A stretch of DNA of 64,000 nucleotides from Clitopilus passeckerianus. Its lineage: Eukaryota > Basidiomycota > Agaricomycetes > Agaricales > Entolomataceae. Made by a program: the position numbers and the translations under genes. A model generated the notes under the pieces. That model made no database searches, had not been told where the DNA came from, and saw nothing but the letters and a program-made list of their open reading frames with translations. The first letter of the stretch is position 1. Every line of letters starts with the position of its first letter. Of this stretch, positions 1 through 9,585 are shown piece after piece. The stretch is from assembly GCA_944990035.1 (NCBI GenBank), contig CALYLX010000034.1:248001-312000 (forward strand), read 5' to 3'.

Positions 1-1234
1 CATCGAGGAAGAAGGTTATTACATCACTTGCCGATAGCTTCGAGGAGATTGCGACGGCTTTGTTAGAGAAGGCCCGAAAGGAGAAAGCCACAGGTATCAC
101 TGAAGGGATCGAGAAGTCTATCCTTGGAGCTCTATGTACGTCTACCTTCTCTTATATAAATACGATTGCTCACGGCTCTGCAGTGCGATCAGAGACTGGT
201 AGCTCTAACGTTCGAATGAACTTGGACGAAATCCGAGCGCAGGTGAGTTATTTGTAACAATGTGATAGAGAGTCATCTAATCCCTCCCAAACAGATCGTG
301 AGTTTTTGCATAACACCTCACAACCATTCTCATCCCGCGACAGAGCCTGTTCATGATCGCAGGATACGAAACAACATCTAGTACGTTGGAGCTTTTGCTT
401 GTTACGGCCCTTACTAAATAAACCCCATTCAGTTACACTCACTGTAAGATCATTCTGCCCAGGATCCCGACTTTGATACTGACGTACACCCAGTGGGCTT
501 TAATCGAACTGTCGCGGAAACCCGAGATCCAGCAGAAACTCAGAGCCGAACTCTCGCAGTTTGCAGACGAGGATCCATCCTTCGAGCAGCTGGGATCCGA
601 CAGCCTCCCATATCTCGATGCCGTCGTTCATGAGACCCTACGACTCCATCCCTCTCTGCAAGAAATTCAACGAAAGGTTTGTACCATCACACGAACTACC
701 AGTTTACTCGTTTCTAAATATTATTCTAGGCGGTCGAGGACGACATAATACCTCTGAGCGAACCCACCAAGGACCTATACGGAAGGGATATTGACACACT
801 TGTTGTCTCCAAGGGCACGGATTTCATCATACCATCCAATGCTATCAACCGTTTGGAAACGCTCTGGGGCGCAAATGCTCGTACCTTCGACCCCGAACGA
901 TGGATCAACGATAGCATCTCCTCAGAAAAGGCTGCCAAGATTCAAAGCTATCACCATTTGCTGACGTTCGCGGATGGACCGCGTACCTGTCTCGGAAGAA
1001 TGTTTGCTGTTACGCAGATAAAGGTAGGCTCGTATCAGACGCCTTTGTTGTCGTACAGCGCTGACTCATTGTACACCATAGGCTGTTCTCAACGTCCTCA
1101 TTCGAAATTATACGTTTGAGTTGCCTGGCGGACCTAATACGAAGTTCGAGGCGCATTTGGGATTGTTGACCAGGCCTAAGGTGGCAGGAGAGAAGAAGGC
1201 TCGAGTTCCACTCCTCGTACGAAAGGTTGATTGA
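1..1234 (+). CDS. Cytochrome P450 (copy A), 3' part of gene
   Basis: This is a haem-thiolate monooxygenase whose 5' exons lie before the window. Exons read as 1-135, 184-242, 295-297, 344-380, 433-443, 494-676, 730-1023 and 1082-1234. Visible P450 landmarks are the I-helix AGYETTS, the ExxR segment HETLRLHP, the meander FDPERW, and the haem loop FADGPRTCLGR with its cysteine ligand. The loop has Ala-Asp where most P450s have Gly-x after the Phe. All frames stay open to a TGA at 1232-1234. It is a close paralog of copies B and C immediately downstream, and exon sizes match base for base apart from small in-frame differences. The 3-base exon (295-297) and 11-base exon (433-443) are inferred from that comparison. 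Substrate is unknown. The family assignment is firm; the splice model is likely. Confidence 0.9.
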
Positions 1235-1906
1235 TAGGACGGTGGGGGCTCTCGCAGAACTCTACATACTACATACTGAATGCATTAGATGTTCTCCTAC
1301 GGGCGTCAAATCCCTTCCTCTTCGCTCACTGTATATATCTCTGCACTAATTTAATACGTATGCAACTACTTGGAATCATTGAGGCAGGGTTTCTTCGGAT
1401 AGTGGTGTTCCATGGCAACAAAGAACTCTCAGGCCCAGGTATACAAGCCTAATTTTCGTAATTACCGCACATCTTCAATTACTCTCCGAACATCCCCTTC
1501 GGAATTCTATAATACCGTACCATTTAGATCAGTTCGGCAGGAGGACATGGGACACTTATGACGAATTTTGGATTTCAGTAAGTTACCTAATCGGGAAGCA
1601 TATTTCATCTTCCCTTGCAAATTAGGACCTCAAGGGTCTAGATATTGGGGCATGGGACAAAGGTCTCGACTTCGGCTTCGGCACTGGTGACCGTCATGGG
1701 CCACAGGACAGCCGAACTGATCGAAATGGTACAGTATCTCAAGCTGGTGGCGCTTGGAGCCTGACGTTGAACGGATCGAATTGCCCGTTACAGTTTCATG
1801 GCATCATCTAAAGCCAGGTAATCGTTTCAACCAAAATAGATGTGGTACAAGTATAAAAGGGATTGTCGACCTTTAAGTTAATATAGACCGACATCATCTC
1901 TCACCC
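1235..1906 (+). other. Intergenic, P450 A to P450 B
   Basis: No gene was recognised. The region holds the 3' flank of copy A and the promoter of copy B. Confidence 0.6.
1852..1859 (+). promoter_or_regulatory. TATA box of P450 B
   Basis: The sequence TATAAAAG lies about 50 bases upstream of the ATG at 1907. This spacing fits a short 5' UTR. Confidence 0.55.
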
Positions 1907-4181
1907 ATGGATTTCTTAAACAACCTCTCGTCGCAAGATGCCGGCCTTACTCACCAACACCCTTATTTTGCTATTGGTGCTTCAGTTTTCGTCGCTGCAA
2001 TTACATTCTCGATCTTGAAACGCTTCCGTCACCGACATTTCACGAAGCTAGCAGGCCCTCCCTCGACGAGTTTCATACTCGGACATTTCCTGGAAGTCTT
2101 GCAGTCGGATGAGCAAGCCAACCTCTACGCCGATTGGGCATTAAAATATGGCCAAGTATACAACGTTCCAGCAACACTAGGATCTCAGGCAATTGTGCTT
2201 TGTGACCTTGCAGCTGTGACGTCAGTACTGTCCAGAGATACTTGGGCCTTTCATCAGGCGCCGAGCATGACTGCCTTCTTCGAGGCCTATGCGAGTCTCA
2301 GTCTTGTTTCCGCCCTAACTTGCCAAGCTAACCATTTCATAGTTTGGCAAGAACCTTGTCATAGTAGAGGGCGAAGACCATAAACGGTAGGTACTAGTAC
2401 CAACGCCACATCTTCTCGACTCTGACCGACGCTTGATTCCAGACAGAGAAGGGCGTTATCAGCCGGCTTTAGTGTAGCTGCAGTGCGCAATGCTACCCCA
2501 GTTTTCTATCGCTCAGTATACACGGTATGAATAGATAGCGCCCTGCCATGCCATGCCATGCCGCTTACTCCCTGATGTAGACTATAGAGCGCTGGAATTC
2601 TCAGATCCAGTCGACGAAGGAAGGGACGGCCACAATTGAGGTACAATCATGGTATTTCGGCTCTATGCACGCCTCCTGTCGTTGTCTGATATCGTATCTC
2701 TAGGATGAATCACATAACGTATGAGGACAGCTGTTGACGCTTCATGCAGCGCAATAATCTCACTTTCACCGGACAGTCTGGACAACATTGGGAACGGCGG
2801 TTTCTCTCACGACTTCGGCACCACAAGAGGCGAACACTCGAATGTCGCTGAAATGTTTGATGCTTTCGCCGACTTGGAAACCGGCTTCGTGGACCTCGCC
2901 GTCTTCTTGCTTGGACCCAACTTCCCTACGCTCTTCCAACTTCCGACGGCGAGGAAGAAGGTCGTTACATCACTTGCAACCAGCTTCGATGAGATTGCAA
3001 TGACGTTGTTAGAGAAAGCTCGAAAAGAGAAAGCAACTGGTGTGAATGAAGGAATCGATAAGTCTATTATTGGAGCTTTACGTGCGTCTCCTGCTCTTAT
3101 ACGAGTACCACTGCTAACGTCTTCGTAGTGCGCTCGGAGACTGGTAGCTCTAATGTTCGGATGACCTTGGACGAAATTCGAGCGCAGGTGAGTTATTTGT
3201 ATCTTTCGTACTATGTATATAGCGTCTAACACCTCCTTTCACAGATCGTAAGCTTTTTGTCGGCCTCCCACGGCCACCATTACTCATTCCGCAAAAGAAC
3301 CTGTTCATGATAGCAGGATACGAAACAACGTCTAGTACGTTGTAGTTCTTGTTTCTTATCTGGCTTATTGATTAAGATATTACCTAGCTACACTGACTGT
3401 GAGAGCATTCGGTTCGAAATCCAGTGCCGCCACTCACCTGATTCTGCAGTGGGCTCTAATTGAACTGTCGCGGAAACCTGAGATCCAGCAGAAACTCAGA
3501 GCTGAACTCTCACAATTTGTAGACGATGATCCAACTTTCGAGCAGCTGGGATCCGACGGCCTCCCCTATCTGGATGCTGTTGTCCACGAGACGCTACGAT
3601 TGCATCCATCTCTGCAAGAAATGCAACGAAAGGTAGATGTTATTACATCCAATGTCGGTTTACCCATTTCTAATATATTGCTCGAGGCGGTCGAGGATGA
3701 CGTGTTGCCGCTCAGCGAACCTATCAAGGACCTATACGGAAGGGATATCGACACCCTTGTTGTCTCCAAGGGCACAGATCTCATCATCCCGTCCAACGCT
3801 ATCAACCGTTTGGAAACGCTCTGGGGCGCAAATGCTCGCACGTTCGACCCAGAGAGATGGATTAACCATATCTCAGAAAAGGCTGCCAAGATTCAAAGCT
3901 ATCGCCACTTGCTGACTTTCGCGGATGGGCCACGTGCCTGCCTCGGGAGAATGTTTGCTGTTACGCAGATAAAGGTAGGATCCTTTCAGGCGCCGTTGTC
4001 ATTCAGCACCGACTCATGGACAATATAGGCTGTTCTCAACGTCCTCATTCGCAATTATACGTTTGAGTTGCCTGGCGGACCTGATACGAAGTTCGAGTCG
4101 CATTTAGGATTGGTACCGAGGCCTAAGGTAGCAGGAGAGAAGAAGGCTCGAGTTCCACTTCTTGTACGAAAGGTTGATTGA
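1907..4181 (+). CDS. Cytochrome P450 (copy B), complete
   Basis: A complete microsomal P450 of about 544 residues in 13 exons: 1907-2290, 2343-2386, 2443-2524, 2581-2651, 2704-2718, 2777-3081, 3129-3187, 3245-3247, 3298-3334, 3388-3398, 3450-3632, 3687-3974 and 4029-4181. The sum divides by three. An N-terminal membrane anchor covers residues about 20-38, followed by the proline hinge KLAGPPS. Later come AGYETTS (I-helix), HETLRLHP (ExxR), FDPERW and the haem loop FADGPRACLGR. The first intron begins with GC (GCGAGT at 2291), while copy C uses GT there. Exons of 15, 3 and 11 bases are conserved in copy C. Intron 3 holds a short CCATG tandem run (about 2545-2562). Neighbours suggest a tandem triplication; the substrate cannot be told. 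Confidence 0.92.
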
Positions 4182-5015
4182 TTGCATGAAGACGCCTCTT
4201 GCGGTACTTTATTACGGATTGATGGACGTCATATCCCATCCTCCTCGCTCACTGTATCTATGTTTACTTGTACACTAATTTAATACCCATGCAAACACTT
4301 GAAAACATTGAGGCAAGTTTCCTTCCAAAAGTGGTGTTCCACCATGATCGTCCTCAAGCGTTCGTACGTTCAAACCCTCACCTCAGATAGCAGTCTATTG
4401 GAGCTAGGGAGGGAAACACTTATAATTCGACGCGAGGCTTGAGAAGAGCAAGCTGTACAAACTTGTACTTATACAGTAGCGTACGACCTTCTCGTACTCC
4501 GGATGCCTTATGGTGCCTGCGCACACGCTCGTCCCAACGTGCGGATGAACAACCAATCGGAAGACTGAAATATGGGAGCCAGCCGGTCGCCTGACGTTAT
4601 TCGAGCCTGCCGAGGAAGGTCGTCATATCAGTCGAACTGCGATCGTGGCAACTGCGAGATTGGCGGCAACCGGGGTTTGGAATTTCCAAGTCAGCCCGGT
4701 TTGCCTATTCAGAGTTCCATGACATTCACTCGCTCAGATAGGTCATTCGCCGGTATATTCTCCTGAAGAGATCTATTCCGATGCTTCTGAAGTCGATACA
4801 TATATTGAGAGCGTCGCCAAAGTTGCCGCCGGCACGCTGGAAGATCCTCGGCTGGCTCATTCCGGACTGAGTTAAATTATCTAATCCATCGTAACCGTCG
4901 GCACATCCAGCTGGGGTTTCTGATTGAGCGTCCCAGAATAGTGACCCTTCCAGGAATACAAAAGCATTCAAAATGTGGAGAACCGCATCTGTCAAACAAG
5001 CTACATTCATCTCTT
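4182..5015 (+). other. Intergenic, P450 B to P450 C
   Basis: About 830 bases with only short, unconvincing ORFs. No gene or repeat was recognised. Confidence 0.6.
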
Positions 5016-7285
5016 ATGGCCACAGAATACCTAAACGGCGTCGCGACAAAGGTTGCTGACCTTGTCAGGGAACATCCTTACGTCGCGCTTGGCACGTCTG
5101 TTTATGTCGCTGCAGTTACTTTCTCAATCCTCACGCGCCGAAGCCGACGTCGATCCACGAAGCTGGCGGGACCTCCTTCGAAGAGCCTGGTCTTTGGGCT
5201 GTCAGGAGATATCATAAGGTCCCCGGACTCGGCAACTATGTTCGAGGAATGGGCCAAGACCTATGGACCAATTTACGAGGTTCCTCTCGCACTTGGAGCA
5301 CATGCTGTTGTGCTGCTCGACCCGAAAGCTCTTGCCTCGATGTTGTCCAAGGATACGTCCGTTTATTACCAACCTAACAATTTGACTGCCTTCTTTGAAG
5401 CCAATGTGAGTATAAACTCCTCGTGTCATACCTTCTGCTTTGAGCTAATTGACGTTTCTCGCAGTTTGGCAAGAACCTGCTAGTCACGGATGGCGATGAT
5501 CACAAACGGCGAGTCTCCTCAGCGTTCAACTTTGCTATGTCTGTTGACACGCAACCTATAGCCAACGGCGAGCTCTGTCTTCCGGGTTCAGTATTGCCGC
5601 CATTCGCAATCTGACAGCTGTGTTCTTCCATTCTGTCAACACGGTGCGCCACCTCCGCTCTATCATGCCTCCCCCATTCTCATATGCTTCTAGGTCAAGG
5701 ACACATGGAGTGAAACCATCAAGTCCAATGGAGGGACTGCCACAATAGATGTACAACACTGGTACGTCCTGACCTATTCAGCCTTCCACACGATTGATTG
5801 ACCCTTTCCTCTCAGGATGAACAACATCTCGTACGAGCTTTCTTAGTTGCTCAAAGTGACGTACTCACACCATACACAGTCTCGACAGCATAGGCAAAGG
5901 CGGCTTCTCCCACGACTTCGGCGCAACTCGAGGCCTTGACTCCTCCGTCGCAGCAAGATTCGACTCCTTCGGCAACCTCAAGCCCAGCTTCATACAGCTC
6001 GCTGGCTTCCTTTTCAGCGCTTACATCCCAGCGCTCGTCAAGCTACCCACGGACAGGAGGAAGTTGATGCAGTCTTTGGCGGGCAGTTTCGAGGAGATCG
6101 CTACGGATTTGTTGGAGAAGGCTAGGCAGGAGAAGGCGACTGGTGTTAATGAGGGTATTGAGAAGTCGATTATTGGTGCTTTGGGTATGTTCTTCTGTCC
6201 TGTTTTCGAGAATGAGGAGCTGACCTGGGGTTTAGTGCGTTCGGAAACTGGTAGCTCTAACGTTCGCATGGACCTTGAGGAGATCAAAGCTCAGGTGAGG
6301 AACTAAAAAACCAAGCCTTAGATCGGTACTGACAGATTTATTAACCCACAGATTGTACGTTTCCTTAGCGTGGCCATTTACATGATATTGATTCTTTGAC
6401 AGAATATGTTCATGATTGCTGGATATGAGACCACTGCAAGTACGTTCATAACGCCATAGCTTCTTACCCTCACTCACCGACTTCGCCTCCCAGCTGCTCT
6501 CACAGTAAGTCCTACCCCATGTTCAGGGGTTGCTCGGACCTAAAACGTGTCTCTAGTGGGCCCTGATTGAACTGTCTCGCCAACCGGAACTCCAACAAAA
6601 GCTGCGAGATGAGGTCGCTCAGTTCGGTGATGAAGACCCCACCTACGAGCAACTTGGTTCCGCCCTACCATACCTAGACGCAGTTGTTCACGAAACTCTG
6701 CGATTACACCCTTCTCTGCCAGAAATATCTCGTACGGTAGGTTTTCCATCCTCGCAACCACACCCACAATCCTGACAATATCTGAAGGCGAACGAAGATG
6801 ACATCTTGCCTGTTGGTGAAACCATTACCGACGCATCTGGAAAAGCGATCGACAGTATCTACGTACCCAAAGGCACCAAGATACGCATCCCAATCAACTC
6901 CGTCAACCGACTGAAAGGTCTTTGGGGAGAGGATGCCCACGAATTTGTCCCAGAGCGCTGGATCAACGATACATTGTCCGCCCAGAAGGCCGCCAAAATA
7001 CAAGGTCATCGTCACCTCCTTACCTTTGCTGATGGTCCACGTACATGTCTTGGCAAACTGTTTGCTTTGACTGAAATCAAGGTATGCAGAATGGCTCGCT
7101 GTCATTTCCAGGTACTGACACCAGTATCACAGACTGTTCTCTTTGTTTTGATTCGAAACTACAACTTTGAGTTGCCCAATGGTCCTGAAACGAAGACGGA
7201 GGTCCACAGAGGGCTGTTGCCTCGTCCCAGGATTGCCGGAGAGAAAGGCGCCCGAGTTCCCCTCATCGTCAAGAAGGTCAACTGA
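5016..7285 (+). CDS. Cytochrome P450 (copy C), complete
   Basis: A complete P450 of about 546 residues in 13 exons with the same architecture as copy B: 5016-5405, 5465-5508, 5562-5643, 5694-5761, 5816-5830, 5880-6184, 6236-6294, 6352-6354, 6403-6439, 6494-6504, 6557-6736, 6788-7081 and 7133-7285; total divisible by three. The membrane anchor spans residues about 25-42. Motifs are AGYETTA, HETLRLHP, FVPERW and FADGPRTCLGK. It is more diverged than A and B are from each other, so it probably split off earlier. The second intron starts with GC (GCGAGT at 5509), whereas copy B uses GT at the same place. The ATG at 5016 precedes the membrane anchor and no upstream in-frame ATG was evident. An MFS transporter follows 285 bases later on the same strand. 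Confidence 0.92.
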
Positions 7286-7570: not shown

Positions 7571-9585
7571 ATGACACAACAGCCAGGCCCATATCCTGGT
7601 ACATTCAGCCGCCAGCGGCTTACTACCCTCTTTGCGTCGTTATTGGTCGCACTCTGTGCTGGCACCAACTATGTGAGTAGGCCTGCGGTTACATTATCTC
7701 GGCCGAAGCTTATGGGCGTTGGTACTCGATTTCTAGGGCTATGGAGGTGATTGAACAACAAATGGACGCGAATGCATGATGCTGACGACGTGTAGCCTAT
7801 TCACCTCAGCTTCGTGAGCGGCTCCGGATCACCCATACCCAAGTGAACATTATCGGGCTTGCTGGCAATTGTATGATTTCACCAGAATACTCCAGATTCT
7901 AACGACCGATGAGCGATATTTCTCCAGATGGCGTATATGGAAGCGCTCCAATGTGGGGAAGAATCATCGACAAGAGAGGGCCAAAGACCTCGATGCTCTG
8001 CGCCTTCACCCTGCTTCTCGCAGGATACTCGGGTATCCGATACATATACGTTGACGGCGTCCCCGACTCTGCGAACACGATCTCAACGTTCACTTTCGTC
8101 GCTCTCGTCCTGTGCGGACTTATGACCGGTGCTGGTGGTAATGGCGGTCTAACTGGCGCCGTAAACTCCACGGCCAAGACTTTCCCGGACAACTTGGTGA
8201 GCTACAGTTTACAGACCCGGAAAAATGCAATGCGTTGACATTTCTGAACAGCGAGCCACTGCTACCGGTGTAGTCGTATCTGGATTCGGCCTTTCCGCCT
8301 TCTTTTTCTCCAACATCGCCCGATTGGCGTTCCCTGGGAACACGCCGTCCTTCCTAGCGCTGCTCGCATTCGGCACATCTGTGCCTATGCTCCTTGGGTT
8401 CTTCTTGGTCCAACCTATTCCGCTTCCGCCACGTTCACATTCCGCCGATGAAGAAGCTAGGAGGCTAAGTGGGGACCAGGACGCAGAGGAGAGAGCCCTG
8501 TTGAACCGGGATGAGGTTGATATGAGCGATGCTGAGATTTCGGCTAGAACTCCTCCGCAACGTCTTTCCCGAAGGGCTGCTCTCAGGAAGGGTCTGTTGC
8601 CGAATGTTTATGGCAGCCACCTGTTCAAGAGCACCGACTTCTGGCTTTTGTTCAGTATTTTGTCGCTATGTAGGTTGACATATCATTACTTGCAATTCTG
8701 TCGCTTATCCTCCTTTATCAGTGGCAGGAACAGGTCTGACATGTGAGTACCCGATAAATTAGACTCACCAAATGCTCAACTTGCTAAAGTGACAATTTTG
8801 CAGACATGAACAACGTCGGCGATATCGCACAAGCTCTGTATGCTAAAGAATCACCGACATACGATCCTATCGAGGCATCGCATTGGCAAGCAAATCAAGT
8901 CTCTGCTATCAGCCTGCTGAACTGCTTCGGTCGGATTTTCATCGGTAAGCCCTTCTGCCTACATATCTAAGAATTTAATATTCATTCCTGTCTAGGTCTT
9001 GTTTCCGACTACTCAAAACACCGCTTTGGCTTCCCTCGGTCATTTGGCTGCATACTAGTATCCATCTTCTACCTAGCTTCTCAAGTTGTAGCCATAAATA
9101 CGGAGCACATAGGCAGTCTGTGGCTGGCCAGCTCCATCCTGGGGCTCGCCCACGGCGCAGTCTTCGCATTGTTCCCCATGGTCGCACTTGACTGGTTCGG
9201 CATGCGTATGTTCTCTTATTACTTTTCGACCTGTCCAATACTCATTCCTTCCAAAGCTCACTTCTCCGAGAACTGGGGCTTCATCTCCGCGTCCCCCGTC
9301 GTAGCGAGCAACCTCTACTCTATCTACTTTGGCCGAAACCTCGACGCCCACTCCGGCAAACCAGCAACTGCAAATCTCAACCCAGCCGATGAAAGCCTTC
9401 GCTGCCTCATGGGGAGATTATGCTACGTCGACGCGTTGTATGTGACTGCTGGAGGATGCGCACTGGCTCTTGGACTTAGCACGTGGGCGTCCATACGAGA
9501 TCGGAGGAAGATTGCGGAGGGATTGGAGGCCTTGAGGGAGAGGAATAGAGAAAGGGAGGTTATTTGGGAGGGCGGCGAAAGCTGA
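7571..9585 (+). CDS. MCH1: MFS transporter, MCH1/nodulin-like (copy A)
   Basis: A predicted 524-residue membrane transporter of the MCH1/nodulin-like branch of the major facilitator superfamily. Yeast Mch1 is a monocarboxylate-transporter homologue of unclear substrate. Nine exons: 7571-7672, 7737-7746, 7796-7870, 7928-8196, 8252-8669, 8722-8742, 8804-8944, 8996-9205 and 9257-9585; the sum divides by three. The 10-base and 21-base exons have exact-size counterparts in copy B at 18161-20017. Signature stretches are GLAGNYGVYGSAPMWGR, an MFS motif-A-like loop (GRIIDKRGPK), and the C-terminal HFSENWGF. A charged loop of about 70 residues separates the two six-helix halves. A degenerate copy of its last exon lies at 11766-12060. 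The symbol is by family resemblance only. Confidence 0.8.

What the first reader, a model, noticed from the sequence alone, without database searches (positions are those of the whole stretch)
295..6354. Three-base microexon (one Ile codon) in all three P450 copies
At 295-297 (ATC), 3245-3247 (ATC) and 6352-6354 (ATT) a single codon lies between an AG acceptor and a GT donor, with introns of about 45-57 bases on each side. Including it gives AQ-I-x-x-F-M-I-AGYETT, the normal spacing between the I-helix AQ and AGxET. Skipping it removes one residue from the oxygen-binding helix. The codon and its flanking splice signals are kept in all three copies although intron sequences differ. Three-base exons are extremely short and would be missed by most gene finders.
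Basis: partly seen in the sequence, partly recalled or inferred. Interest (0 to 1): 0.78.

Follow-up and report, generated by a model that had tools for sequence, protein, structure and literature searches.

The report
Single-codon exon in mushroom P450 genes
Three neighbouring mushroom cytochrome P450 genes each carry an exon only three bases long that adds one amino acid to the enzyme's oxygen-binding helix; the same tiny exon recurs across the gene family and seems to have been missed in many published gene models.

Summary
At 295-297 (ATC), 3245-3247 (ATC) and 6352-6354 (ATT) one codon lies between AG and GT, with 46-57-nt introns on each side. I modelled 29 copies of this P450 family in the host genome (about 16 loci plus presumed alleles). 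A spliced aligner calls the 3-nt exon in 20; 3 more hold AG|GTC|GTGAGT at the same place although the aligner skipped it; in 6 the codon is fused to the preceding exon (59+3=62 nt). None of the 29 lacks the codon; it reads Ile, Met or Val. Skipping it would need a 101-120-nt intron, while 248 other introns in these genes run 47-72 nt. Among 208 public relatives, 23 of 68 Agaricales entries lack one residue exactly here, against 0 of 130 from other named orders; 10 of 10 entries without organism name, on 1.8-3.1-kb contigs, keep it. Best reading: an old, constitutively included single-codon exon spliced by intron definition. No RNA of this fungus was available. The kind is known (3-nt exons in animals, a 1-nt exon in Fusarium CYP621A, I-helix micro-exons in Phanerochaete). 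What I add is the family-wide recurrence, the fused natural forms and the likely database error.

The parts
295..297 (+). 3-nt exon ATC (Ile), P450 copy 1
   Evidence: AG|ATC|GTGAGT, introns 52 and 46 nt
243..294 (+). intron upstream of the 3-nt exon, copy 1 (52 nt)
   Evidence: gtgagtta..ccaaacag; CTAAT at -18
298..343 (+). intron downstream of the 3-nt exon, copy 1 (46 nt)
   Evidence: gtgagttt..cgacag
3245..3247 (+). 3-nt exon ATC (Ile), P450 copy 2 (exon 8 of 13)
   Evidence: AG|ATC|GTAAGC, introns 57 and 50 nt
3188..3244 (+). upstream intron, copy 2 (57 nt)
3248..3297 (+). downstream intron, copy 2 (50 nt)
6352..6354 (+). 3-nt exon ATT (Ile), P450 copy 3 (exon 8 of 13)
   Evidence: AG|ATT|GTACGT, introns 57 and 48 nt
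6295..6351 (+). upstream intron, copy 3 (57 nt)
6355..6402 (+). downstream intron, copy 3 (48 nt)
184..242 (+). exon 7, copy 1 (59 nt, ends ..AQ)
3129..3187 (+). exon 7, copy 2 (59 nt)
6236..6294 (+). exon 7, copy 3 (59 nt)
344..380 (+). exon 9, copy 1 (37 nt, SLFMIAGYETTS)
3298..3334 (+). exon 9, copy 2 (37 nt)
6403..6439 (+). exon 9, copy 3 (37 nt)
433..443 (+). 11-nt exon 10, copy 1
   Evidence: separate in 20 of 29 family copies
3388..3398 (+). 11-nt exon 10, copy 2
6494..6504 (+). 11-nt exon 10, copy 3
2704..2718 (+). 15-nt exon 5, copy 2
   Evidence: separate in 25 of 29 family copies
5816..5830 (+). 15-nt exon 5, copy 3
1..1234 (+). P450 copy 1, 3' part (gene begins upstream of the window)
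   Evidence: one search ended the first partial exon at 136, the donor gtacgt puts the end at 135, as the full model has it
1907..4181 (+). P450 copy 2, 13 exons, 544 aa
   Evidence: PF00067 241.6 bits
5016..7285 (+). P450 copy 3, 13 exons, 546 aa
   Evidence: PF00067 228.2 bits

Best explanation
The three bases are a genuine, constitutively included single-codon exon. It supplies the hydrophobic residue (Ile here, Met or Val in relatives) that follows AQ in the I-helix and keeps six residues between AQ and AGYETT. Two short introns, inserted three bases apart in what was one coding stretch, isolate the codon. Each intron is small enough (46-65 nt) to be recognised on its own (intron definition), so the exon need not be recognised as a unit. 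Because the two sites are three bases apart, the introns are probably removed one after the other. Shown here: sequence, splice signals, recurrence in the family, fused natural variants, protein spacing. Inferred: inclusion in this organism's mRNA, one-after-another removal, and the enzyme's need for the residue.
For: (1) AG|codon|GT in all three copies. (2) Of 29 modelled family copies in the host genome, the spliced aligner called a 3-nt exon in 20; 3 more have AG|GTC|GTGAGT at the site; 6 have the codon fused to exon 7, with exact sums (59+3=62); 0 of 29 lack it. (3) Over 16 loci codon position 2 is T in 16 of 16, position 1 is A or G, position 3 varies: the pattern of a conserved hydrophobic codon. 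(4) Flanking introns are 46-65 nt (52 introns); 248 other introns are 47-72 nt (mean 54.0, SD 4.2); the skip form would need 101-120 nt in the 23 split copies. (5) The intronic parts of the codon-side sites score within the range of the other sites: donor percentile 0.17-1.00, acceptor 0.09-0.97. (6) With the codon, the I-helix aligns without a gap to CYP3A4; without it the Pfam score falls from 228.2 to 220.3 and from 241.6 to 233.2 bits. (7) 169 of 208 public relatives have six residues with I, V, M or L first; 23, all Agaricales, have five; 10 of 10 entries without organism name have six. (8) P0006, a 557-aa open frame on a 1,924-base contig too short for 12 introns, keeps the Ile (SQIHLLMI-AGYETT) and branches between Lyophyllaceae rows that are one short and the window's own copies.
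Against: No RNA from this organism. In 3 of 29 copies (C24_51792, C54_344516, C136_605256) the aligner preferred a single 110-114-nt intron; I assigned these by motif. The aligner's queries hold I, M or V at the site, which favours this parse, and on a stretch without a proper gene it invents exons of 1-7 nt, so its call alone is weak evidence; the constant place and exact sums carry the weight. Some codon-side sites are weak: donors ATG|gtttgt and ATG|gtaatt, two acceptors at percentile 0.09-0.10; with the exonic bases counted, donors after GTC/GTT score 4.3-5.6 against a median of 7.4. The one-short public entries could be true skipping rather than error.
Confidence: 0.93

Rival explanations
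1. There is no exon: a single intron of about 101-110 nt is removed and the I-helix is one residue shorter; the AG-NNN-GT is accidental.
For: The aligner chose this for 3 of 29 copies; 23 of 208 public entries have this form.
Against: 248 other introns in these genes are 47-72 nt; shuffles give the motif in 0.25-2.25% per locus; the codon is fused to exon 7 in 6 of 29 copies; 10 of 10 entries without organism name keep the residue; Pfam score falls by 7.9 and 8.4 bits.
Confidence: 0.03
2. The codon is a regulated cassette: inclusion gives an active oxygenase, skipping gives an in-frame enzyme with a shorter I-helix and altered or no activity.
For: Three bases keep the frame; micro-exons in animals are often regulated (abstracts and passages); Doddapaneni 2005 suggested that micro-exons promote alternative splicing in fungal P450s (passages).
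Against: No skipped form among the 10 entries without organism name; the codon is hard-wired by the missing intron in 6 of 29 copies; the intronic part of the codon's donor is at or above the median percentile in 20 of 23 split copies. None of this measures this fungus.
Confidence: 0.04

Closest known systems
1-nt exon in Fusarium CYP621A P450 genes (Nelson and Syed 2026, PMC12940212; parts 1 and 2 of 3 read)
   Same: Ultra-short exon inside a conserved fungal P450 motif, wrong in nearly all gene models, found through spacing, intron length and a relative lacking the introns; same logic as here
   Different: 1 nt in the PKG motif of an ascomycete family, with RNA reads; here a whole codon in the I-helix of a basidiomycete family, without RNA
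Micro-exons in Phanerochaete chrysosporium P450 genes (Doddapaneni et al. 2005, PMC1184071; passages read)
   Same: Basidiomycete P450 genes with frequent 45-55-bp introns and micro-exons; PMC12940212 mentions several in the I-helix motif, one of 8 nt in AGHETT of CYP5141A1
   Different: Shortest exon given there is 6 bp; no single-codon exon in the passages read
3-nt micro-exon of Drosophila homothorax (PMC7392893; passages read)
   Same: Three-base, in-frame, evolutionarily conserved exon
   Different: Alternative, the first three bases of a 48-bp exon, isoforms with partly distinct functions
1-nt exon of Arabidopsis APC11 (PMC4674806; passages read) and plant micro-exons (PMC8831610; passages read)
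   Same: Constitutive exon (APC11) far below exon-definition size; intronless relatives in which the base is part of a large exon; widely misannotated
   Different: Plants, other genes, RNA-proven

Membership tests
Cytochrome P450 (PF00067) | Pfam model above curated cut-off | tested here: met
   228.2 and 241.6 bits against 22.8 for copies 3 and 2
Cytochrome P450 (PF00067) | Haem motif FxxGxRxCxG and ExxR (motifs recalled) | tested here: met
   Both found in the models of copies 1-3; haem motif in 29 of 29 family copies, my narrow ExxR pattern in 25 of 29, the other 4 not looked into
Cytochrome P450 (PF00067) | I-helix AGxETT at the usual distance | tested here: met
   Ungapped against CYP3A4 with the codon included
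Micro-exon | Very short internal exon flanked by GT/AG introns | tested here: met
   3 nt, introns 46-57 nt in the window copies
Micro-exon | Included in mature mRNA | not testable with these tools
   No RNA of this organism; only transcript-like entries of relatives
Micro-exon | Evolutionary conservation of the exon | tested here: met
   Of 29 modelled copies 23 split (3 of them by motif only), 6 fused, 0 without the codon; exon boundaries in other species not seen
CYP621A-type 1-nt exon | Single nucleotide inside the PKG motif | tested here: not met
   3 nt, in the I-helix
Recursive splice site (zero-length exon) | AG directly followed by GT so that the first splice rebuilds a donor | tested here: not met
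   Copies 1-3 read AG|AT[CT]|GT; in the family 9 of 29 copies (GTC, GTT) do start with GT

The most novel reading that the evidence does not exclude
The single-codon exon is a regulated in-frame switch: under some conditions a P450 isoform with an I-helix one residue shorter is made, with altered oxygen activation, and the one-residue-short public entries in Agaricales record real transcripts rather than errors.
Probability: 0.05. Interest if true: 0.75.

Novelty: new member of a known kind. Interest (0 to 1): 0.42.

Why it matters
A one-codon exon that recurs through a large enzyme family shows how far intron definition may go in genes with ~54-nt introns, and gives a natural series (split, fused upstream) for testing it. 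In practice, public entries of this family in Agaricales often lack a residue of the oxygen-binding helix (23 of 68 looked at here), so expression from such models could fail for a trivial reason.

Tried and rejected
Order of intron removal: branch-point-like CTNAY near the acceptor was found in 18 of 23 upstream and 17 of 23 downstream introns, so no order can be read from it. With stricter CTRAY it was 14 of 23 against 9 of 23, which I do not interpret.

Other-species DNA: one scan of viral contigs with copy 3 found nothing. The genome collection with DNA is prokaryotic, so exon boundaries in other fungi were not seen, only their proteins.

Aligner results against my reading: 3 of 29 family copies were parsed with a single 110-114-nt intron. 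N-terminal parts of several models are unreliable (odd short exons, introns of 82-109 nt) and were left out of the intron count; a first count of 250 introns held at least one such artefact of 109 nt, the corrected count is 248. Of 37 anchors modelled (22, 15) eight were set aside as other families or failed models: C112_207822, C23, C125, C111, C133, C43, C48, C139. C112_207822 has a 57% identical exon; on re-modelling only the last two exons (294 and 150 nt) fitted, so it looks like a 3' fragment without the I-helix. The C24_51792 model has one in-frame stop. One search scored 79 of 332 candidates, so 29 copies is a lower bound.

Alleles: pairs were assumed from position and identity; 8 of 10 pairs compared are 93-98% alike, C112_506384/C1_132195 78% and C24/C54_344516 86% (the latter counted as two loci). 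The C54/C136 pairs were judged from the tree only.

Protein spacing: 208 is all proteins listed by three searches (120 shown each of 889, 724 and 650 hits, overlapping). Classes: 169 six with I/V/M/L first, 20 five, 2 six with Q first, 9 without AGxET match to my pattern, 3 not anchored, 5 longer. By eye four more have six (P0097, P0100, P0103, P0157), and the three not anchored (P0005, P0129, P0161) are one short and were added to 20 to give 23; P0005 and P0129 are also disturbed upstream. The order was looked up for seven Agaricales species and one Boletales species; for the other genera it is recalled. The Fisher value ignores relatedness.

Literature: nine searches were run. That I found no single-codon exon in a basidiomycete P450 rests in the held open-licence library; two searches concerned other points.
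Full report
What is there. The window lies in a 64.8-Mb genome (G000, contig C34:248001-312000), a basidiomycete to judge by its nearest relatives. Its first 7.3 kb hold three tandem P450 genes. Copies 2 (1907-4181) and 3 (5016-7285) have 13 exons; copy 1 is cut by the window edge. Exon sizes of copy 3 are 390, 44, 82, 68, 15, 305, 59, 3, 37, 11, 180, 294, 153. The spliced proteins are P450s (PF00067, 228.2 and 241.6 bits).

Is it an exon? Four lines say yes. First, splice signals: AG|ATC|GTGAGT, AG|ATC|GTAAGC, AG|ATT|GTACGT, whose intronic parts score within the range of other sites of these genes. Second, intron length: the flanking introns are 46-65 nt in the family, 248 other introns are 47-72 nt, and skipping would require 101-120 nt. 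Third, protein spacing: inclusion gives six residues between AQ and AGYETT and an ungapped match to CYP3A4, while leaving the residue out costs 7.9 and 8.4 bits against Pfam. Fourth, natural variants, described next.

The family in the host genome. I fetched 24 regions and modelled genes with a small spliced-alignment script. Twenty-nine modelled copies belong to this family, about 16 loci plus presumed alleles (8 of 10 pairs compared are 93-98% alike; C112_506384 and C1_132195, 78% alike, may be two loci). A separate 3-nt exon was called in 20 of 29. In 3 of 29 the script used one 110-114-nt intron, but AG|GTC|GTGAGT sits at the right place. In 6 of 29 the upstream intron is absent and the codon is the last of exon 7, which is 62 instead of 59 nt. 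None of the 29 lacks the codon. It reads ATC, ATT, ATG, GTC or GTT. In the same way the 11-nt exon is fused to the next one in 9 of 29 copies (11+180=191), and the 15-nt exon is not separate in 4 of 29 (86 = 71+15 in two of them, 80 in the other two, which I did not resolve). The exact sums show where exon edges are. A caution: on a stretch that holds only a gene fragment the same script invents exons of 1-7 nt, so a single call proves little; the constant position does.

Copies 1 and 2 are recent duplicates with introns almost as alike as exons, so their agreement is not informative; copy 3 and the other loci are.

Age and direction. In a quick tree of 61 proteins the fused C112/C1 copies are nested among split ones, which points to loss of the upstream intron there; the C34_152187/C36_227277 pair sits in another clade, so split/fused needs two changes. 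Public relatives extend the picture: of 208 proteins, 169 have the six-residue spacing with I, V, M or L first, 20 are one residue short at this point, plus three read by eye; these 23 are all among the 68 Agaricales entries, 0 among 130 from other named orders. They come from twelve genera (Lyophyllum, Tephrocybe, Sphagnurus, Mycena, Hypsizygus, Psilocybe, Pholiota, Volvariella, Stygiomarasmius, Crepidotus, Cyclocybe, Crassisporium). Two Pholiota proteins that are neighbours in the tree differ in it, one with six and one with five, as expected of annotation error. Some entries carry what look like footprints of the introns: AQ-M-VRI-NVLLL (P0098, Mycena), QMVCKSKY (P0123, Infundibulicybe) and QMVCQ (P0007, Termitomyces) read like translation on through a donor after the codon; extra stretches of 19 (P0022, Hygrophoropsis) and 17 residues (P0163, Suillus) before the M read like a kept upstream intron. 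P0205 (Imleria) has 9 extra residues, too few for an intron, and fits neither (all). From this I infer that the exon is at least as old as the last common ancestor of these Agaricales, and that Boletales may have the upstream intron alone. Genomic DNA of these species was not seen.

Transcript-like evidence. Eight contigs are too short to hold 12 introns, so they are probably cDNA. The best is P0006, which branches between one-short Lyophyllaceae rows and the window's copies.

How it works. A 3-nt exon is hardly recognisable as a unit. Guo and Liu proposed intron definition with stepwise removal for the 1-nt APC11 exon (passages of PMC4674806). In C. [quoted passage not shown] With introns of ~54 nt throughout, this gene fits that model. 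I could read no removal order from branch-point-like motifs. If one intron were kept, 5 of the 6 single-retention forms of copies 1-3 meet a stop in the stretch translated, and the sixth (copy 1, downstream intron) shifts the frame; skipping stays in frame.

Compared with what is known. Three-base exons are known in animals (PMC7392893), 1-nt exons in plants and, since February 2026, in Fusarium CYP621A, where the authors also note several I-helix micro-exons in Phanerochaete P450s. The 2005 Phanerochaete survey gives 6 bp as shortest P450 exon. I found no report of a single-codon exon in a basidiomycete P450 in the searches named in Tried and rejected; most subscription papers are outside that library. 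So this is a new member of a known kind, with good comparative support and a practical annotation error attached.

Noticed in passing
2291-2342 and 5509-5561: GC-AG introns: copy 2 intron 1 and copy 3 intron 2 both begin gcgagt.
   Followed up: no
C112 and C1 family copies (L053, L055); C24, C54_344516, C136_605256 (L052, L047, L049): Unusual I-helix motifs: AGYEPT in four copies and AGYQTT/AGYQTV in three, where the usual acid or alcohol residue is replaced.
   Followed up: partly
L039 and L040; L047/L048 and L049/L050: The assembly appears to hold both haplotypes: the three-gene P450 array on C34 has a counterpart on C36 (95-98% protein identity), and the C54 array a near-identical one on C136.
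   Followed up: partly
G000 contigs C34, C36, C54, C136, C112, C1, C24, C120: The family is expanded, partly in tandem clusters; single introns are missing with exact exon sums in different clades (11+180=191; 71+15=86; 59+3=62).
   Followed up: partly
L054 (C112:206400-210200): A 3' fragment of this P450 family: only the last two exons can be recognised.
   Followed up: partly
7571-9585: A multi-exon open frame right of the P450s reads like a major-facilitator transporter by eye; not searched.
   Followed up: no
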